Shown piece by piece: positions 7,813 to 26,108 of a stretch of 38,753 bases of DNA. The stretch comes from a virus: IMG/VR virus record IMGVR_UViG_3300048589_000274, positions 1 to 38,753 of that record. One strand, given 5' to 3'. The translations under genes and the position numbers were made by a program. The stretch's first letter is position 1. Each line of letters starts with the position of its first letter. The notes under the pieces were generated by a model. That model was not told the origin of the DNA. It did no database searches and was given only the letters and a program-made list of their open reading frames with translations.

Positions 7813-9777
7813 TCAGGAAATGATCGCTCTATCTGTCACACGTCTCCAATTTGTGCCATCCGAAAACGCCGGCACAGCGCCGCCGCTTTCGTTCGACACA
7901 TAGATAAGAAAGAACGAAAATGACGCTGCAGACGGCACCCCGGCCACGGTGAAGGCCGGGAGCTGAAGGCCCGGATTGTAGCCTCGGCACCCGTTCACCA
8001 CAGCGACAGCGCCCGCGGCCGTGACGACGGTGTTGAAGCCGCGCGTCACGTTGCCCGATAGATCGGCACCCGCGATGGTCAGGCCAGCAGTGGCAGCCGA
8101 GTTGACATTGACGCCGTACCGCTGCCGCTGAATGCCGGGGTGCAGCGCGTACCCACCGCCGCCGTACCGGCCGCCGCTGATCGTCAGGTTGTTGAAGCCG
8201 TCGATGAGCACCCCGTCATACACGTCAACACCTGCTTGACTGTTACCGCTGGAGACACAGCCAACCATGGTAGCCGACGAGTTGTTTGAGCCGGTCGGGT
8301 AAAAATAGAAACCGTATTGCTGGTTGTTGATCGCTTTGCAGCCGATGAACTCAAACTGCCCTGTGTCGTCCTCCCCAATTTCCCAACCAGAACCGGCGTT
8401 GCTGAGCGTGACCTGACAATCCACGCATGTGATGCGCGTGCCGCTGCGTATTTTCCAGCCGACGCCGTTCAACTCCAGCTTGCAATTATGCCACGACCAA
8501 AACTCGGGCCAGGTAGCGCCAGTGCTTCGCATCTGCATTTCGATACCAACGTTCCACGTCGTCACAGCCACCTGCGCCAGATCGAGCGTTGACCCGCCGA
8601 ACGCTCGAATGCCGTAAGCGTTTGCCGGTGGGTTGAACCCGACTGAGTATAGGCCGCGGAAGTTCACGTTTTGGCATTGCCGCCCCGCCGCATCGGTCAG
8701 CAGGACGCCGTGTGCGTCTATTGACCCATCGCTGGTGCATTGATTTATCGTGATGTTTTCGAACTTTCCGCTGAACACCCCATCAAGCACGAGAAAATCA
8801 TGGCCAAACAGCATAAGCACGTCTCGCATGACAAAATTGGTCGCTCGCGTAACTCGAATGAGCGCGTTAGCAACGCTCGTCAACGTAGATGCTCCAGGCC
8901 CGTTTACTGCCATGTCAATCATGCCGCAGTAGAAAAATTCTCCAAACTGAAACCCGTCGTGGTTCCCGCTCGTGACCACCTGCGATCCGATTGCGTTATT
9001 CTGCCCGCGACCGCAACCTTGCACAATTACGCCGTGCCTGTTGATGACGATAGGGCCGCTCGTCTTGTAGCGGCCCGGCGGGAAGTAGAGTACGCCGCCG
9101 ATCGCCGACGTGATCGCGTTCTGCGCGGCCTGGATCGCGGCCGTGTCGTCGGTGACGCCGTCGCCTACAGCACCGAAGTCCTTGACGTTGCGCCACTCGG
9201 CAAAGCGGTCCTGCAGCGAGCGCGGCGTCGTCGAGCCGGTTGACACGATGAAGTCGGAAGGAACGCCGCCGCCGCCGAAGAACGCCGGGTAGAGCATCGG
9301 CAAACCGGCGGCGTCAAAGCCGAGAAGTTGACTGGCGCGCTGCGCGGCCGGCGGCAGTGCAGGCCCGATCGACGTCTCCGTGATCGCGCCGAGGATCGCG
9401 CGATCGGCCTGCTCGCGAAGCTGCTGAATGGTGAACATGATGTTGTCGAGGCCACCCTCGACCGCTTCCGGGTAGTAGCCGCCCTGGTTGATCAGGTTTG
9501 TTGTCTGCTGTTCGGGCACGTCGCGCAGCAGCGTCAGGCGCCAGCCTGTCGCCAGTGGTGCCGCGCCGCTTGCGGGGTAGGTGAACGTGCCGCCCGTTGG
9601 GCTGCCGGCGCCCGTCATCGACCACGACGCTGCGGGCACGGCGGTCGTGATGCCGGCCGGGCTCGTCATCTGCAACGTCGCCTGCGCCTTCACGGGAATT
9701 TCGAAATTGTAGTTGAACGTGGTCTGCACCCCGTTCCCCAACACAGTGACCTTGGCGGTGATGGTGCTGATCGTCAT
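7813..9777 (-). CDS. tail spike 1: T7-type fibre N-domain plus pectate-lyase beta-helix
   Basis: 654 residues, ribosome-binding site GGAG 9 bases before the ATG. The N-terminus (about 1-150) has the pattern of the T7 gp17 anchoring domain: VLGNGVQTTFNYNFEIPV, then GWRLTLLRDVPEQQ, then a conserved helix LDNIMFTIQQLREQADRAI. After a Gly/Pro linker, the segment near 200 (DFGAVGDGVTDDTAAIQAA, then FPPGRYKTSG) is the classic start of a pectate-lyase-3-type right-handed beta-helix. The rest is a long series of short N/G-rich coils. The protein probably binds the tail tip by its N-domain and binds or degrades host surface polysaccharide by its helix. It is the first gene after the ejection proteins, as in T7. 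Confidence 0.85.
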   Translation of the reverse strand: MTISTITAKVTVLGNGVQTTFNYNFEIPVKAQATLQMTSPAGITTAVPAASWSMTGAGSPTGGTFTYPASGAAPLATGWRLTLLRDVPEQQTTNLINQGGYYPEAVEGGLDNIMFTIQQLREQADRAILGAITETSIGPALPPAAQRASQLLGFDAAGLPMLYPAFFGGGGVPSDFIVSTGSTTPRSLQDRFAEWRNVKDFGAVGDGVTDDTAAIQAAQNAITSAIGGVLYFPPGRYKTSGPIVINRHGVIVQGCGRGQNNAIGSQVVTSGNHDGFQFGEFFYCGMIDMAVNGPGASTLTSVANALIRVTRATNFVMRDVLMLFGHDFLVLDGVFSGKFENITINQCTSDGSIDAHGVLLTDAAGRQCQNVNFRGLYSVGFNPPANAYGIRAFGGSTLDLAQVAVTTWNVGIEMQMRSTGATWPEFWSWHNCKLELNGVGWKIRSGTRITCVDCQVTLSNAGSGWEIGEDDTGQFEFIGCKAINNQQYGFYFYPTGSNNSSATMVGCVSSGNSQAGVDVYDGVLIDGFNNLTISGGRYGGGGYALHPGIQRQRYGVNVNSAATAGLTIAGADLSGNVTRGFNTVVTAAGAVAVVNGCRGYNPGLQLPAFTVAGVPSAASFSFFLIYVSNESGGAVPAFSDGTNWRRVTDRAIIS

Positions 9778-17960: not shown

Positions 17961-18403
17961 CATGTTCTCCTGTAGATGGCGTAAATCGTGGCGGGTGCCA
18001 GCACGCGCCTAACCTCCCGGAACCCCATCCACTCAACCCACGCGCACCCGGTATGGTATCTGAGATCGGTGACACATTCCAGCACCGGGTATCTGGCGTG
18101 CATCCGCTCTACAAAACGGCGCGCGGCCTTGCACACAGCGATCGGATGGGCCTTTAGCGCATCAGTCCCAAGCATCCAGACAGTGGCCTGGGTGCCGATC
18201 AGGGATGCCGGGTTCACGCCCCATACTGCCATCGGCACGCCATCGCGCTCGGCCATTTCCGCTACCGCCGCGCCCCCCACTGACCACCGCAGCGCATCGA
18301 GCGCGGTCATGGCGGCCCCTTCGCACTCCTCGCGGTGCTCGCGTTGCATGTGCGCCGCTACGTACTCGACACCCTCGCGCGTGGGCGGCCCTATCGTGAT
18401 CAT
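17960..18403 (-). CDS. internal virion protein, GNAT-fold, T7 gp13-like (147 aa)
   Basis: 147 residues from the ATG at 18,403, which has AGGAG 7 bases upstream and a 4-base ATGA overlap with the tail-tube gene; longer open frame upstream lies inside that gene. The sequence has the outline of a small acetyltransferase fold: start MITIGPPTREGVEYVAAHM, middle PMAVWGVNPASLIGTQATVWML, end GCAWVEWMGFREVRRV. T7 gp13-type virion proteins (DUF2833) have this look and order, between tail tube B and gp14. It is not expected to be a working acetyltransferase. In T7 the protein is needed for assembly of infectious particles. Confidence 0.7.
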   Translation of the reverse strand: MITIGPPTREGVEYVAAHMQREHREECEGAAMTALDALRWSVGGAAVAEMAERDGVPMAVWGVNPASLIGTQATVWMLGTDALKAHPIAVCKAARRFVERMHARYPVLECVTDLRYHTGCAWVEWMGFREVRRVLAPATIYAIYRRT

Positions 18404-21400
18404 CCGTCGTCTCCTACGGTCACGTTCGGGATGATAGCCAGCACGGTAGCCGGCAGCGGATACGCCTGCTGAATACACACGATGCCTTCCTCACTCCATA
18501 GGGCGCGCATGTTCACTTCGCTGTCCCTGTAGAATAGCGGCGCTTTCGCGGAAGGTGCAGAAGGCATCGGCGGATCGAGCAGTTCGCCGCCAAGTTCGAA
18601 CGGCGTCTGCTGCCCCATCGGGTCCGCGACGTTGCGATCCGCAATCTCGACAAGGTCGGTCCACGACGAACCGATTTGGACGCCGCGGCACTCCGTTCGG
18701 CGCATCGTCACGCCAGACAGCAGCTTTCGGTCGCCTTGCACCGTAGCGGCGCCGGGCACAGCGGCGTCGAGCCGCGGCGTCTGCAGCAGCGCAGAGAAGC
18801 CCTGCCCTACGATGATCGCCGTGGCAGCGGCGTCGAGCGTGATGCACCCATCGACGACGGTCTTTGGCGCCTGCACCGACCCGTCAGCAAGCACCTGCAC
18901 GACGCCGCCATTCAGATGCTCCAGGCCGCCGATCGTGGTGACGGGTGCCGTCAGCGACCATGCGCCAGGCGGCTGCTCTGCGATGACGATGTTGTTCGGG
19001 TCCGGCAGGTTCGGAACGCCGACAGGCATGCGCTGCATGTCGCACCGTAGCGACGAACCTGTTGGCGCACTAAGCACGACGCCGCGGCCACCGAGGAAGC
19101 GGACTGTCTTTCCGACATCTGCGCCTGAGAACAAGGCAGCGTCAAAATTCAGCGTGAGTGGGTCAATCACGGCCGCGCTGATCATCGCGCCATTGCCGCC
19201 GAGCACGTTGATCTGCGGGCGCACATAGGCCGCGCCTGGATTGACCAGCGTCACGCCAGTGACCACGCCGGCCGTGGTGGTCACGGTCACGACGGCGCCA
19301 AAGCCTGGTCCGTCGAGATCGACCACTTGCACGATCGGCACCGCCGGATAGTCGGCGCCGCCTGCGTCGATCGACAGGTTGGCTAGTTGGCCGCCGTTCT
19401 CGTTGCTGACGCTCGTCAGCGTGGCGTTCGGTGTGGTCAGCGGGTACTGCGCGCCGCCATCGACACACCACGACAGTTCGGGGCTGGCCGGGATGCCGGC
19501 TGCAGGGTTTGCGCCGAAATTGCGCGACGCCATGCGCTCGACGGCATAGGTCAGACCAAGCACCTGTGTGTAGCGGCGCACCACGAGATAGACAGCGTCC
19601 TCGCGCCCTTCCGGGATCACGCACACCGACACGACAAAGCCCGCCGTGTCGTGCCGCGCCCACCCATACACGTCCTGCTCTTTTAGGTACGTCAATGAGA
19701 GCAGAATGCCGTCGTCGCGAACCGCCCACACGAGCTTGAACGGTTCCTCGGCGAACCCCCATTGCGTGATGGTGCGGTTCTCCAGCAGATGCGCCGACAT
19801 CACCGACACGTCCTGGCCGGTGAAGTTGTTGGTGTAGATGTTGAAGGCCAGATCGCGCACTGCGCTGCCCCGCGACTGCAGGTACAGCACGTTGTTGCCG
19901 ACGCGCAGCGGTGCGAGATCGGCAGCACCGGAGAAGATTTGCGGATTGGCCTGTACGGTGCCAGGTGTCACGGTGCTGTTCTGGCCGCCGCCGCTGATCA
20001 GGTACGCGCCTCCCGAGGTGAGCGCGATCAGTCCGTTCGTGACAGGCGTCAGCGACGAAATGATGTTCACCTCATTGGCAGACAGCGTTCCGGTGATCGC
20101 GTCGTCGTCCTGCGGCGGATCGCTGGTATCAAAATTATTGTACTGACCAGGGCGTGACATCCAGAACGTTGATGGAGCCCCATCGTTTCCGGCATACACC
20201 TTGCGCTGATCTAGAAAGCTGACGCACTTCGCACTCGATGCGGGGCCGGCCGAGAGTGACACGGTAGCGCCTGACGCTGGCGTGTCTGTTCCGATCGTAG
20301 AGAAGGTGATCGTGTCGGCCGCGCCCGTCGTGGAAAGGCCTGTGCCGGGCGCGCCGAACACGCTCCATGAGATCGCCGTTACGATGCCGCCGACCACCTG
20401 CGTGACATCAACCGCCAGCGACTTGCCGCCAACCGGAGAGCCCGCCAGGCCGGCGATGTAGGAGACATAGGAAGCCTGGTGGTAGTTGCTGCCGCCGGCC
20501 GCGATCGTGATGCTGCCGGGCGCAGGGATGAACCCCGATATGCTGTCCGGCACCCAATTTCCGTCGAACGCCAGCGTGAGGCCGCTGCCGAGCGGCGCCG
20601 CATCGAACACCGCGCCTGTCGGGATCGAGTAGTTGGTGCCTCGTGTTGTGATGGTGGCGCCATTCAATTCACCATAGGGAGACGCGGACAGCGACGTGTC
20701 GGATGACAGCGACACTTGGCCGCCGGCTCCGGTACTGTCGCTGATGACGACGAAAGGCGCGATGTACCCCTGGCCTGGGTTGGTGATCGCCACTGCAATA
20801 AGGCCTCGATCCGAAAGCGGGTTGCTCGCGATCGGCGGCGACACCGAAAAGTCGGGCGCATAATTCACATCGACAAACACGTTCTCGAATGTCGATGCGA
20901 GGATACCATAGGTGTATGGGCCGCCGCCTTGCGTGCCGGCGGGCACCGGGAATGCTTTGTACACGCGGTACTGCACTGCGCCTGGCACGGCATCCCACGT
21001 GATGCGGTTGACTACGGCATTCACCTGATCGAGCCCGCTGTTCTCCGTGAAGGCGAAGCCTGACGCGTTGCTCTCCCGACCGTTCGCATCCACTGACGTG
21101 ATCGCATAGATGTACACGTACTGCGGATCGCCGGTCACATTGTTGATCGGCGTCACCGTGACGACGCCAGGCGGCGTGATCGTGGCACCAAAGGTGACGG
21201 CGGCGATCTGCCAGTTGGTGATGCCAAGGCGCCGAATATCGTAGATCGCATAAAGCGGGTGCACGACGGTCAGCACGTCCGCGCTCTGTGCGAAATTCAG
21301 TTCGAACAGATCGGCGCCGGTCCACGGTGTCGCGATGTCGTATATGCGCGCCAGCGTGCCGCCGCTGACCCAGGGCGTCCACGTGGCGGCGCTGACGCCG

Positions 21401-21915
21401 GCATAGGTCAGCGTGTACTGCCCGAGCGTCAGATCATCACCAGCGATGGCCATGATGCGGAAGGTGCGGCCATTCATGCCAGAGATGCCGTTGGCGCGCA
21501 CGAGCCCGACGAACCCATTGTCAGCAGTGACAAAGTCACCCACCGACCATCCGTGTGCCGGCACTGTCACCACGAGCGGGTTGGCAGCCGACGCCGCGGT
21601 GATCGCCTGCGGCGCCTCCAGCACGTAGGCGCCATTGTCGATTACGCGCATCCGATCGTTGTTCAATTCGAGCACATACGCCTGTTCGGTGGAGAACACG
21701 AACGGGATCAGCCGCGGCTTTGGGTTGCCAGTGATGCGTTCGCACAGCCCAACGTGCTGCGTGCCGGCGCGCGAACTGGCGCCACCTCGATAGTCCACGA
21801 AGAAATTGCGCATCGTGGCCGCCCCGACTTTGTACTTGTCGAGATCGACGCGGCCCATCAGCGTCGGTGACAGCTCGCCGCCGGCAAAGCTCGTCTTGGG
21901 GATCGGGAAGGTCAT
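18400..21915 (-). CDS. tail tubular protein B-like nozzle (1,171 aa)
   Basis: The N-terminus FAGGELSPTLMGRVDLDKY, followed by RNFFVDYRGGASSRAGTQHV, is a conserved signature of podoviral tail nozzle (tubular B) proteins. The protein forms the distal tube through which DNA leaves the particle. At 1,171 residues it is longer than T7 gp12 (about 790). The extra length appears to come from several copies of a short beta motif with GxxY, e.g. ITNPGQGYIAPFVVI, TTRGTNYSIPTG, IDAGGADYPAVPIV and LVNPGAAYVRPQINV. These look like surface domains used for carbohydrate contact or fibre attachment (inference). It follows tubular A with a 9-base gap. Confidence 0.85.
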   Translation of the reverse strand: MTFPIPKTSFAGGELSPTLMGRVDLDKYKVGAATMRNFFVDYRGGASSRAGTQHVGLCERITGNPKPRLIPFVFSTEQAYVLELNNDRMRVIDNGAYVLEAPQAITAASAANPLVVTVPAHGWSVGDFVTADNGFVGLVRANGISGMNGRTFRIMAIAGDDLTLGQYTLTYAGVSAATWTPWVSGGTLARIYDIATPWTGADLFELNFAQSADVLTVVHPLYAIYDIRRLGITNWQIAAVTFGATITPPGVVTVTPINNVTGDPQYVYIYAITSVDANGRESNASGFAFTENSGLDQVNAVVNRITWDAVPGAVQYRVYKAFPVPAGTQGGGPYTYGILASTFENVFVDVNYAPDFSVSPPIASNPLSDRGLIAVAITNPGQGYIAPFVVISDSTGAGGQVSLSSDTSLSASPYGELNGATITTRGTNYSIPTGAVFDAAPLGSGLTLAFDGNWVPDSISGFIPAPGSITIAAGGSNYHQASYVSYIAGLAGSPVGGKSLAVDVTQVVGGIVTAISWSVFGAPGTGLSTTGAADTITFSTIGTDTPASGATVSLSAGPASSAKCVSFLDQRKVYAGNDGAPSTFWMSRPGQYNNFDTSDPPQDDDAITGTLSANEVNIISSLTPVTNGLIALTSGGAYLISGGGQNSTVTPGTVQANPQIFSGAADLAPLRVGNNVLYLQSRGSAVRDLAFNIYTNNFTGQDVSVMSAHLLENRTITQWGFAEEPFKLVWAVRDDGILLSLTYLKEQDVYGWARHDTAGFVVSVCVIPEGREDAVYLVVRRYTQVLGLTYAVERMASRNFGANPAAGIPASPELSWCVDGGAQYPLTTPNATLTSVSNENGGQLANLSIDAGGADYPAVPIVQVVDLDGPGFGAVVTVTTTAGVVTGVTLVNPGAAYVRPQINVLGGNGAMISAAVIDPLTLNFDAALFSGADVGKTVRFLGGRGVVLSAPTGSSLRCDMQRMPVGVPNLPDPNNIVIAEQPPGAWSLTAPVTTIGGLEHLNGGVVQVLADGSVQAPKTVVDGCITLDAAATAIIVGQGFSALLQTPRLDAAVPGAATVQGDRKLLSGVTMRRTECRGVQIGSSWTDLVEIADRNVADPMGQQTPFELGGELLDPPMPSAPSAKAPLFYRDSEVNMRALWSEEGIVCIQQAYPLPATVLAIIPNVTVGDDG

Positions 21916-21924
21916 GCGATGCCC

Positions 21925-22722
21925 CTAGAACACGAGGAAGGACGGCGTCCACCATCCCTGATTTGACGCACCAACGCCATCGTCGCCGAGGATCGCGCCG
22001 CTGTAGCCGCGCACCGCGATCCAATCAGGCGTGAAGTCCGTCGATGTGGTGCCTTCGTTGCCGTCCCGGCTGCGTGCGGTCTGGATTGCGTTCATGGCGC
22101 TCTGCGCCCGCGCCCGCGCGATGTCCTGCTTTCCCGAGATCGGCATGGCGAACCGCGTGGCCAAGGCTTGCACCATGGCTTCCTGAAACAGCGGGTCCCA
22201 CAGGTCTTCGATCTCGATGCGCTGCGTGTAGAGGCACAGCGCGCTCGCGCGGTTCGTCAAAACCACCTTCACCTGATTGCCGCTATTGTCCGTGTCGGCC
22301 GCGACGGCGAAGCGCGAAGGGACGATAGCGCCGGGCGCGAAGCCGGCCGGCAGTGCCACCGAGAACATCGGCTGATCGAACCCAGGCTGCGCAACAAGAG
22401 ACGTGATCATGCGCACCTGTACGCAGTCATTCGGGTACGCATAGGAGTAGAACCACGGAGGCGGCGGCATCGTTGCCGGATCATAGACGTTCGGCGTTCC
22501 GGTCGGGTTCTCTGGCGTGCCCGGAGCGGCCTTGAGCAACGCGAGCTGCACCATCTTGCGCGCGAAGTTCCACGGGGCCGCCCGCAGTAATTCATCGCGC
22601 GTCGGATCGTACAGCAAGCGCGCCTGCTCCGCTTCCGTGCTTCGCTCGTTGAGGTTCACCAGCGACGAGCGCGCGGCGATCGCAGAGAGCGCACGGTTCA
22701 CGATGTCGGTGCGAGTTGTCAT
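21925..22722 (-). CDS. tail tubular protein A-like adaptor (265 aa)
   Basis: 265 residues. The start TTRTDIVNRALSAIAARS and the following RLLYDPTRDELLRAAPWNFA are the typical signature of podoviral tail tubular A/gp11-like adaptors, which join the portal to the nozzle. The middle segment (WFYSYAYPNDCVQVRMI) and the C-terminal helices (ATRFAMPISGKQDIARARAQ) also fit the family, which is usually 190-270 residues. Gene order A then B in transcription is as in T7. One base separates its start from the stop of spike 2. The C-terminal tail GWWTPSFLVF is hydrophobic and may pack into the nozzle. Confidence 0.87.
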   Translation of the reverse strand: MTTRTDIVNRALSAIAARSSLVNLNERSTEAEQARLLYDPTRDELLRAAPWNFARKMVQLALLKAAPGTPENPTGTPNVYDPATMPPPPWFYSYAYPNDCVQVRMITSLVAQPGFDQPMFSVALPAGFAPGAIVPSRFAVAADTDNSGNQVKVVLTNRASALCLYTQRIEIEDLWDPLFQEAMVQALATRFAMPISGKQDIARARAQSAMNAIQTARSRDGNEGTTSTDFTPDWIAVRGYSGAILGDDGVGASNQGWWTPSFLVF

Positions 22723-22723
22723 G

Positions 22724-24310
22724 CTACACCATTGTCATAGCGGTGGCGTACCTGTGCTCTGCGTCAACTTCGGCACGGAGCACCGTAGGGCCGGTCGCGC
22801 TGGGCGCAACATGCGTCACCGTGATTGTCAACGTGGCCACTTGGTCGCCCGCGCCGCCGACGACGCTCCATGCAGCCGCGGCCGAAATGCCAGAGCCGGC
22901 TGACGAATTTTCATCGCGCACTACGGCGTGGCTCCCGGTGATAGCGGAGCCTGTTCTACGATAAAAAGCAGCATCAACTATGCCCGTGTAGGTTTCCACG
23001 TCTGCAAAAGCGTTTTGCACCGTAAGTACGCTCAGCTTCACCCTAAGCGCGCTGCCGGAATATTGGCTTGTCGGAAGTGCCAGCGTTATGACTACGTCCG
23101 TCGTCGTTCCGGCCGTCAAATTTTTGGCCACAGAAGTAGGAGTGTTGCATGCCGTAGCCCCTACGAACGTGTTTGGCATCGGCCACAGGCGGCCATTTAG
23201 AAACCCATTAGCGGCCTTGCTCCAGTGACCAGATGCGATAACAGTTCCCGTAGGCGCAGCAGAAACCCACCTGACCGGGTTTACATCTTCTGATGATCCC
23301 CCCTCCAAAAACACTACGCGCTCTGGCGAATTAAAATTGTGCAGAACGCGAGCGTTTACGCCTTGAAAACGACAATCCACTATAGACAAAAATACAGGAG
23401 AACCAGCGCCTCCTAGTGTGCAAATTAGTTCGTGATCTTTGATCGTGTTACCCGGGCCAAACTGACAATTTTGGTTTGTCCCGTCGAGCGTGGCAATCTC
23501 TACAGGCCCGTCAAAAATGCATCCCGATATATTTGTGCTGAACCCATACCGCCCAAACCTGGCGCCGCCATTTGGTCCGTTCGTATAGGTTGTAAAAAGA
23601 GACATTTGTAACCCGGCAGATGAGGCAAAGTCTAAGTCATACAAACCATTAAAATATGAATTTCCGCCATAAATTTGATAGTCCGTTACAAGATCGGAAA
23701 CGCCAAGCCCTGTCCCGAGGTTTCTGTCGAAAATGCATTGGATAAATGCGTTATCGACAACGCTTGGGCAGTTTGTTACGCCATCAATAGTGGTTTCAGT
23801 AAGATAGCAGCCGTACAAATTGGCTCCGGTAAAGCGGCAATTTATAATACGGCTATTGATGGTGCTAAGGGCTAAACCAATGTCTTTTGTGCCGCCTGCA
23901 TCTATTACAATATTCTCCATATTTAGCGCCCACGTGACAAACGTAAGATTATTCGCGTATGAATTTGACGCCAACAAGTAGTTACTATCGCCGATACCGC
24001 TCGATTTGATAGTGGCAATACCAAGGCTTTTGATGCCTACGCCTCGATTGTTTCGTGTCGGGTGGATCAAGTTGTCAACCAAATACGTAGCGCCATCGCG
24101 CAGCATCAGCACGCCGCCTTCGGGGAGTGCATTCAGTGCTGTTTGGAAAGGGCTTGTGTCATTGGTGACACCGTCGCCTTTGGCGCCGAACTGCTCCGGT
24201 GTCAGGTATGGGCCGCTGACAACAGGGATCAGAACGCCGTCGCCGGGATCGAGGGCGCGCAGCTTGGCCCACATGCCGTTCGGCTGCTGCACGAGAAGGT
24301 TATCGGCCAT
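22724..24310 (-). CDS. tail spike 2: repeat-module anchor plus pectate-lyase beta-helix
   Basis: 528 residues with a strong AGGAGG ribosome-binding site. The first 30 residues (LLVQQPNGMWAKLRALDPG, then DGVLIPVV) are one copy of a module that also makes up the two small proteins upstream. A beta-helix start follows (EQFGAKGDGVTNDTSPFQTA), then N/G-rich coils to about residue 370 and a C-terminal beta-rich domain (about 380-528) with T/S/V repeats. Most of the coil region (about 23,300-24,060) is clearly more AT-rich than the rest of the window. This suggests the receptor-binding part was exchanged by recombination. Likely role: a second polysaccharide-binding or -cleaving spike, held on the virion by its N-terminal module. 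Confidence 0.8.
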   Translation of the reverse strand: MADNLLVQQPNGMWAKLRALDPGDGVLIPVVSGPYLTPEQFGAKGDGVTNDTSPFQTALNALPEGGVLMLRDGATYLVDNLIHPTRNNRGVGIKSLGIATIKSSGIGDSNYLLASNSYANNLTFVTWALNMENIVIDAGGTKDIGLALSTINSRIINCRFTGANLYGCYLTETTIDGVTNCPSVVDNAFIQCIFDRNLGTGLGVSDLVTDYQIYGGNSYFNGLYDLDFASSAGLQMSLFTTYTNGPNGGARFGRYGFSTNISGCIFDGPVEIATLDGTNQNCQFGPGNTIKDHELICTLGGAGSPVFLSIVDCRFQGVNARVLHNFNSPERVVFLEGGSSEDVNPVRWVSAAPTGTVIASGHWSKAANGFLNGRLWPMPNTFVGATACNTPTSVAKNLTAGTTTDVVITLALPTSQYSGSALRVKLSVLTVQNAFADVETYTGIVDAAFYRRTGSAITGSHAVVRDENSSAGSGISAAAAWSVVGGAGDQVATLTITVTHVAPSATGPTVLRAEVDAEHRYATAMTMV

Positions 24311-24622
24311 CTATGCCTCCTGTACACAGAGCACGAGCACGCCGGCGCTGACCACAGCGCCTATCCTGGCCCACCCGCCGTTCGGCTGTTGCAGATTGAA
24401 AAAAGTCGTGGCGGTGTCAGTGGAGGTCAGCAGGCGCACCGTGTCGGCATCTGCCTCGGTGGCGATCTGCGCCCACTCGCCTTCTGCGCTGATGACGACA
24501 AGGGCGCCGTCCGCGGCGGCACCTAGCACAGGCACCAGCACGCCGTCGCCGACGTCATTTGCGCGAATGCGTGCCCACACCCCGTTCGCTTGTTCGATCA
24601 GGAAATCGTCGGGCACGCGCAC
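24311..24622 (-). CDS. small W-repeat protein, three copies (103 aa)
   Basis: 103 residues from a GTG with GGGAG 5 bases upstream. It is made of three copies of a roughly 27-residue unit centred on NG.W or EG.W: residues about 9-33 (EQANGVWARIRANDVGDG), about 41-66 (ISAEGEWAQIATEADAD) and about 75-100 (LQQPNGGWARIGAVVSAG). The first copy is closest to the N-terminus of spike 2. The second and third align with the 63-residue protein encoded upstream. The protein probably decorates the virion or sits between spike and tail (inference). Its stop touches the spike 2 start with no bases between. Confidence 0.72.
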   Translation of the reverse strand: MRVPDDFLIEQANGVWARIRANDVGDGVLVPVLGAAADGALVVISAEGEWAQIATEADADTVRLLTSTDTATTFFNLQQPNGGWARIGAVVSAGVLVLCVQEA

Positions 24623-24637
24623 TGCACTCCCTGCTGA

Positions 24638-24829
24638 TCAGGCCACGCAGAGAGTGAGCACCCCTGCGCTTTCCACCGCGCCGAGCTTGGCCCATTCGCC
24701 GTTCGGCTGCTGGAAATTGAAGTACGTCGTCGGCGGCAGGTTCGTCACCACGATGGTTTCAACCCCGTCGTCGGTTGTCGTGGCCAGCTGCTTCCACGTG
24801 CCGTCAGCACTGAGAACAAGGATGGCCAC
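24638..24829 (-). CDS. small W-repeat protein, two copies (63 aa)
   Basis: 63 residues from a GTG with GGAAG about 8 bases upstream. It contains two units of the repeat: LVLSADGTWKQLATTTDDG (about residues 4-22) and NFQQPNGEWAKLGAVESAG (about 38-56), each ending in a hydrophobic beta strand (LTLCVA at the C-terminus). It is clearly related to the last two-thirds of the next protein, so the pair arose by tandem duplication. Function unknown; likely a small virion or head-fibre protein, from its place among structural genes. Confidence 0.68.
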   Translation of the reverse strand: MAILVLSADGTWKQLATTTDDGVETIVVTNLPPTTYFNFQQPNGEWAKLGAVESAGVLTLCVA

Positions 24830-24835
24830 GACAGA

Positions 24836-25261
24836 TCACTTCCGCACCGCGGGCGGCGGGGGCGGCGGCGGTGCGGCCGCAACCGGCGGCACCGGCACGA
24901 GGCGCGCCAGCAGCGGCGCCAGGGCTTCGGCCAGCGCCTTCGCGATGACGACACCGAGACGCTCCATCTGCACGTCGTCCTCGCCGGGCGTCGTCAGCGG
25001 GATGTGACGCGTGAAGTCCATCACCTGCCCGGTCGGTGCGCACGCCTTGGCCGCCCGCGCGACATCGTCGAGCGGCTCCATGTGCGGGCCGGGCATGCCG
25101 GCGAAATACACCTCGGCGCCGATCTCCAGCAGCTCGGGCTCGCCGCCGGGCTGCTTCGGGAGGTGCGACTTCGCGGAAAGCCGATACCGGCCCGGCGTCA
25201 CCACCTCGATCGGGGTGGATGCCGGAACCGGGATCGGGTTCACCTGTACTGCTTCGCTCAT
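24836..25261 (-). CDS. hypothetical structural-block protein with proline-rich tail
   Basis: 141 residues with GGAG 8 bases ahead of the ATG. The N-terminal half has alternating beta-like segments (TPIEVVTPGRYRLSAKSHL, then LLEIGAEVYFAGMPGPHME). It is followed by a helix of A/L (VIAKALAEALAPLLARL) and a polyproline end. No family recognised. Its place between cement and spike modules suggests a virion component or chaperone; the proline-rich tail suggests a docking role. Confidence 0.62.
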   Translation of the reverse strand: MSEAVQVNPIPVPASTPIEVVTPGRYRLSAKSHLPKQPGGEPELLEIGAEVYFAGMPGPHMEPLDDVARAAKACAPTGQVMDFTRHIPLTTPGEDDVQMERLGVVIAKALAEALAPLLARLVPVPPVAAAPPPPPPPAVRK

Positions 25262-25781: not shown

Positions 25782-26108
25782 TCAGGTGTACGCGAGGGCG
25801 GTGATCGTGCCCGCGCCCGGCGTGATTGCGATGCCCGCGTAGTACGGCATGTTCACGTTGTACACCGTTCCGATCGGCGCACTGGCGGGAATGACGAACA
25901 TGAGCGTCGCCGCGGTGCGATCGGCGAGCACACCGGCATCATAGATCGATGTGGCCACGGCCGCATCATCGATCACCACGATGGAGACGAGCCATCCCGA
26001 GCCAACCGTCACCATCTGGCCGACGCCGTTGATGTTGAGGTTCCGGCGGATGGCGGGGCGCGACAGCACGATGCCGGCGGTGTCGGCCAGGAGGCGAGAG
26101 CCACTCAT
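25782..26108 (-). CDS. small beta-rich structural protein (108 aa)
   Basis: 108 residues with a strong AAAGGAAC ribosome-binding site. The sequence is all beta-like and small-residue-rich: LADTAGIVLSRPAIRRNLN, then VSIVVIDDAAVATSIYDAG, then NMPYYAGIAITPGAGTI. Such proteins commonly follow capsid genes in phages of this type and are often found in virions. Position between major capsid and cement genes supports a head decoration role. Exact family not recognised. Confidence 0.7.
   Translation of the reverse strand: MSGSRLLADTAGIVLSRPAIRRNLNINGVGQMVTVGSGWLVSIVVIDDAAVATSIYDAGVLADRTAATLMFVIPASAPIGTVYNVNMPYYAGIAITPGAGTITALAYT

What the first reader, a model, noticed from the sequence alone, without database searches (positions are those of the whole stretch)
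22724..24829. Six copies of a W-centred repeat shared by two tiny proteins and a spike N-terminus
A unit of about 27 residues with [NDE]G.W[AK].[LI] and a trailing hydrophobic strand occurs twice in the 63-residue protein, three times in the 103-residue protein and once at the start of spike 2. The middle gene is a bridge: its front matches the spike, its rear matches the 63-residue protein. A shared module suggests a docking unit through which small decoration proteins and the spike co-assemble, and a way to swap spikes.
Basis: partly seen in the sequence, partly recalled or inferred. Interest (0 to 1): 0.66.

Follow-up and report, generated by a model that had tools for sequence, protein, structure and literature searches.

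The report
Repeat docking tag on phage spikes
A short-tailed phage carries a ~30-residue tryptophan-centred module at the front of a sugar-cutting spike and repeated two and three times in two tiny neighbouring proteins; comparison with a sister phage suggests it is a plug-and-socket tag for mounting interchangeable host-binding proteins on the virus, a new version of a known modular design.

Summary
Six copies of a ~30-residue unit ([QE]Q[PA]NGxWA[KR][LI] core in four, SA[DE]GxW in two) occur in three adjacent genes: two in the 63-aa protein, three in the 103-aa protein (probably 101 aa, starting at 24616) and one at the start of spike 2. Models built from one protein recover the others; shuffles do not. 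The window is a BPP-1/epsilon15-like podophage. One sister phage in IMG/VR (capsid 100% identical) is decisive. There the 63-aa gene is 97% identical at DNA level, but the next two genes are swapped. In place of the 103-aa gene is a 229-aa protein with the same N-terminal unit on an unrelated body, followed by a spike 52% identical overall but about 80% in its first 47 residues. So the unit is an N-terminal tag carrying at least three different bodies, and the 63-aa two-unit protein sits on the constant side. Best reading: a docking module for secondary receptor-binding proteins, with the 63-aa protein as socket. Docking itself is inferred: AlphaFold gave no confident fold, and no virion data exist. 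Functionally it resembles the KP32-type conserved-peptide systems but is not demonstrably homologous to them. New variant of a known kind.

The parts
24731..24829 (-). unit 63a (residues 1-33 of the 63-aa protein, SADGTW subtype)
24641..24730 (-). unit 63b (residues 34-63, QQPNGEW subtype)
24638..24829 (-). 63-aa two-unit protein; 97.4% DNA identity to the sister phage, i.e. on the constant (backbone) side; proposed socket/adaptor
24518..24616 (-). unit 103a (N-terminal, homologous to the N-termini of spike 2 and of the sister's 229-aa protein)
24413..24508 (-). unit 103b (SAEGEW subtype, matches 63a)
24314..24409 (-). unit 103c (QQPNGGW subtype, matches 63b; 77% DNA identity over 92 nt)
24212..24310 (-). 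unit at the N-terminus of spike 2 (residues 1-33)
22724..24310 (-). spike 2: unit followed directly by a right-handed beta-helix (pectate-lyase type) body; relatives of the body begin mostly at residue 33-41
24836..25261 (-). 141-aa protein (phrog_590-like), upstream edge of the variable cargo slot
21925..22722 (-). tail adaptor/connector (phrog_394; PDB 8ck1 connector), downstream edge of the slot
18400..21915 (-). tail nozzle (PDB 8ck1 tail nozzle)
7813..9777 (-). spike 1: primary tailspike with its own anchor domain (residues 1-132 match PDB 8ck1 tail fibers) and beta-helix body; carries no unit

Best explanation
The unit is an N-terminal docking tag ('plug') of secondary receptor-binding proteins, and the 63-aa two-unit protein is the constant adaptor ('socket') through which they are mounted on the tail, independently of spike 1, which has its own anchor. 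Shown: the homology of the six units, the mosaic structure of the cassette, and the conservation of the unit and of the 63-aa gene while the bodies are exchanged. Inferred: each unit forms a short three-stranded beta-meander that associates with other units; the 63-aa protein links spike 2 (and the sister's 229-aa protein) to the connector/nozzle; and the 103-aa protein is a cargo-less tag fused to a copy of the socket-like tandem, which lengthens or caps the dock or keeps it occupied.
For: Same N-terminal unit on three different bodies: beta-helix spike, 229-aa protein, two-unit tandem. Between the two phages, DNA identity is 95-100% from the capsid gene through the 63-aa gene, falls to 69% in the unit of 103/229, is 79% in spike codons 1-47 and 38-63% over most of the spike body, and returns to 92% in the connector gene: a swapped cassette next to a constant 63-aa gene. 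Purifying selection on the 103 tandem relative to the 63-aa gene (dN/dS about 0.25) argues against debris. Spike 1 matches the tail-fiber anchor of 8ck1 in residues 1-132 while spike 2 lacks any such domain. The position between the phrog_590 protein and the connector is a variable cargo slot in many related contigs. The three genes are tightly packed, with the spike's AGGAGG site inside the end of 103. Known precedent: about 29 conserved N-terminal residues dock the second spike of KP32 phages, and natural 61-69-aa truncated versions occur (PMC6872550; PMC13082707).
Against: Only two genomes carry the unit, and the strongest argument rests on comparing them. No confident fold. No direct evidence of binding or of presence in virions. 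No branching domain was found in spike 1, so the receiving site is a guess.
Confidence: 0.55

Rival explanations
1. The unit is only a trimerisation or folding cap at the N-terminus of the spike and of the 229-aa protein; the 63-aa and 103-aa proteins are assembly factors or chaperones that contact the cap during folding and are not in the virion.
For: The unit is placed directly before the beta-helix; low monomer confidence would also fit an obligate oligomer.
Against: Beta-helix spikes have many unrelated short N-terminal stretches (14 of 73 have fewer than 75 residues before the helix, nearly all different from one another and none like the unit), so a special cap with two helper genes is not generally needed. 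No known chaperone family matched.
Confidence: 0.17
2. Head decoration: the 63-aa and 103-aa proteins sit on the capsid, and spike 2 is a head-mounted depolymerase docked on them.
For: The block lies beside capsid accessory genes (Bbp16-like, 108-aa and 141-aa proteins). In related contigs the same slot holds PF21628 Gp10-like proteins and a GH5-like enzyme that matches phrog_9703 'head decoration'.
Against: The slot also borders the tail connector and holds beta-helix spikes or tail-fiber-like proteins in other contigs; there is no sequence link to any decoration protein.
Confidence: 0.15
3. The 103-aa gene is recombination debris: the stub of a 229-like gene fused to a duplicate of the 63-aa gene, without function; only the spike unit matters.
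For: Unit-by-unit matches show exactly this fusion. Truncated second spikes in KP32/KP34 phages were read as retrograde evolution.
Against: Intact frame, intact units, dN/dS about 0.25 for the tandem against the 63-aa gene, and it carries the spike's ribosome-binding site.
Confidence: 0.13

Closest known systems
KP32/KP34-type branched receptor-binding systems (RBP2 with a short N-terminal 'conserved peptide', PMC6872550)
   Same: About 30 conserved N-terminal residues followed directly by a beta-helix depolymerase body; a second spike beside a separately anchored first spike; short 61-69-aa versions without cargo exist.
   Different: There the socket is a T4gp10-like branching domain of RBP1; here no such domain was detected in spike 1, and a separate two-unit protein with the same repeat is the candidate socket. 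No significant sequence similarity between the tags. The cargo-less version here has three units.
Tail of PDB 8ck1 (connector, nozzle, tail fibers Dpo36)
   Same: Homologous connector, nozzle and spike 1 anchor domain.
   Different: Nothing like the unit was found in the PDB by sequence.
BPP-1/epsilon15/phiV10 podophages (Rauchvirus, Uetakevirus)
   Same: Capsid 46-51% identical and the same order of capsid, Bbp16-like, small protein, tail connector and nozzle genes.
   Different: No unit-bearing genes in the loci examined, and no annotated spike gene at this position in the six annotated relatives examined.

Membership tests
KP32-type conserved-peptide RBP2 | short conserved N-terminal stretch followed by a beta-helix (depolymerase-type) body | tested here: met
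   (fold only; enzymatic activity untested)
KP32-type conserved-peptide RBP2 | sequence similarity of the tag to the conserved peptide | tested here: not met
   best z 3.6 (p 0.0055) among 15 comparisons, most far lower
KP32-type conserved-peptide RBP2 | T4gp10-like branching domain in the first spike | tested here: not met
   no such Pfam match in spike 1 up to E 1; only about 60 residues between anchor and helix
Right-handed beta-helix phage tailspikes | pectate-lyase-like beta-helix body | tested here: met
   PF12708 above cut-off in the sister homologue and 3.7e-5 here; model of the helix and Foldseek hits to Geobacillus virus E2 ORF18 and KP32gp38
Right-handed beta-helix phage tailspikes | homotrimer on the virion | not testable with these tools
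   no multimer prediction, no virions
Capsid decoration/cement proteins (Bbp16, Gp10-like PF21628) | sequence match of the 63/103-aa proteins | tested here: not met
   no match of the 63/103-aa proteins to these families

The most novel reading that the evidence does not exclude
A self-complementary repeat acts as both plug and socket: single units on interchangeable receptor-binding proteins dock onto a dedicated two-unit adaptor (and a three-unit extender), giving a building-block system for mounting spikes without a branching domain.
Probability: 0.33. Interest if true: 0.66.

Novelty: new variant of a known kind. Interest (0 to 1): 0.45.

Why it matters
Modular spikes are known, but their sockets are usually domains of a larger tail protein. 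Here a tiny dedicated adaptor appears to share the repeat of the tag. If true, this is a minimal genetically encoded docking pair of 30 and 63 residues, it would explain how this phage group exchanges host-binding proteins at one locus, and it makes the evolution of multi-spike systems directly testable.

Tried and rejected
The unit was sought in annotated phages, IMG/VR and GTDB genomes: only the sister phage has it. The genome-contig hit (L041) and the DNA-pattern hits L042-L054 are chance. An apparent similarity to Klebsiella and Escherichia second-spike N-termini came from the FGAKGDG start of the beta-helix. The 229-aa protein's body has no recognisable relative; a look-alike in L016 was not significant. 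Foldseek on the low-confidence 103-aa model was meaningless. A first run of the cross-recovery test failed because of incompatible program options and was redone. Ideas of a beta-trefoil or beta-prism for the three-unit protein could not be tested.

Full report
What the window is. The window is a whole IMG/VR virus record of 38,753 bases; whether it is a complete genome is not known. It encodes a podophage of the BPP-1/epsilon15/phiV10/BcepC6B kind: its major capsid protein is 46-51% identical to theirs, and the order portal, scaffold, capsid, Bbp16-like, small proteins, tail connector, nozzle is shared. The connector and nozzle match chains of PDB 8ck1.

The observation. Three consecutive minus-strand genes carry six copies of a unit of about 30 residues. 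Every pair of copies scores above shuffled controls, though the weakest pairs only modestly (z 2.5-3.6). Models trained on one protein find the other proteins: the 63-aa model finds the 103-aa protein (4e-20) and spike 2 (1.7e-4), the spike/229 model finds the 103-aa (5e-22) and 63-aa (3e-8) proteins, and the 103b,c model finds the 63-aa protein (1.5e-18) but spike 2 only weakly (0.028); reversed or shuffled frames give nothing below 0.26. There are two subtypes: QQPNGxW-like (63b, 103a, 103c, spike) and SADGxW-like (63a, 103b). The 103-aa gene is indeed a bridge: its front is the spike-type unit and its rear is a copy of the whole 63-aa protein (51% identity; 77% DNA identity over the last 92 nt). 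Its likely start is the GTG at 24616, which aligns with the ATG of the corresponding gene in the sister phage.

The sister phage. IMGVR_UViG_3300048833_000105 (L012) has a 100% identical capsid protein. Its 63-aa gene is 97.4% identical at DNA level, like its neighbours (95-100%). The next two genes have been exchanged. Where the window has the 103-aa gene, the sister has a 229-aa protein with the same N-terminal unit and an unrelated body without known relatives. Its spike 2 is 52% identical overall, but about 80% in the first 47 residues. DNA identity is 69% in the 103/229 unit, 79% in spike codons 1-47, 38-63% over most of the spike body, and 92% again in the connector gene. Purifying selection acts on the tandem of the 103-aa protein (dN/dS about 0.25 against the 63-aa gene, with synonymous sites near saturation).

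The slot. In related contigs with homologous capsids, the stretch between the phrog_590-like protein and the connector is a variable cargo slot. It holds beta-helix or tail-fiber-like proteins (L024, L028), a GH5-like enzyme (L024), PF21628 Gp10-like proteins (shown for L013; near-identical in L015, similar in L016) and several unknown proteins. None of these carries the unit.

Spike 2. Its body is a right-handed beta-helix. The confident part of the model begins at about residue 31, directly after the unit. Relatives of the body elsewhere mostly begin to match at residue 33-41 and have other N-termini. Spike 1 (7813-9777) has a different anchor, matching residues 1-132 of the tail fibers in 8ck1, and lacks the unit.

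Mechanism. The best reading is a docking tag. Spike 1 is mounted by its own anchor. Spike 2, and in the sister also the 229-aa protein, are mounted through the unit; the constant 63-aa protein, made only of two units, is the natural candidate for the socket. The 103-aa protein would be a tag without cargo fused to a socket-like tandem. The homology and the exchange pattern are shown here; the binding, the beta-meander fold and the place on the tail are inferred. That the 229-aa protein binds a receptor is also an inference from its position and its tag. AlphaFold on three sequences gave pLDDT 39 for the 103-aa protein, with strands in the expected places but no reliable fold. Multimers could not be predicted.

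Comparison with known systems. The closest functional parallel is the KP32/KP34 family of Klebsiella phages. There a second depolymerase is attached by about 29 conserved N-terminal residues, and natural 61-69-aa truncated versions occur (PMC6872550; PMC13082707). Two defining features were tested and not met: similarity of the tag sequence and a detectable T4gp10-like branching domain in the first spike. It therefore works like that system but is not filed as a member. Within the searched collections the unit is restricted to two phages.

Verdict. A real and well-delimited module, most likely a new variant of modular spike docking. Its most novel reading, a repeat that is both plug and socket, is plausible but unproven.

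Noticed in passing
window 25782-26108: A 108-aa gene between the capsid and Bbp16-like genes was seen only in the window and the sister phage among the loci compared; it is 100% identical at DNA level (327 nt) although the flanking genes differ by 2-5%.
   Followed up: partly
window 24311-24622: The three-unit protein has a weak match (E 0.002, residues 18-70) to phrog_36232, a family of unknown function; it may be compositional.
   Followed up: no
L024 12123-13475: A GH5 cellulase-like protein (PF00150, 7e-16) that also matches phrog_9703 'head decoration' sits in the cargo slot of a related contig.
   Followed up: partly
L013 7518-7811; L015 3862-4230; L016 11194-11484: A PF21628 Gp10-like small protein (domain match run for L013 only; L015 near-identical, L016 similar by eye) lies directly before the connector gene; the window has spike 2 at that place instead.
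   Followed up: partly
window 18400-21915: The nozzle protein is about 340 residues longer than its 8ck1 homologue (1171 vs 830 aa); similarly long forms occur in L012, L013 and L015.
   Followed up: no
window 24311-24325: The ribosome-binding site AGGAGG of spike 2 is formed by the last codons of the three-unit gene, so the two are probably translationally coupled.
   Followed up: yes
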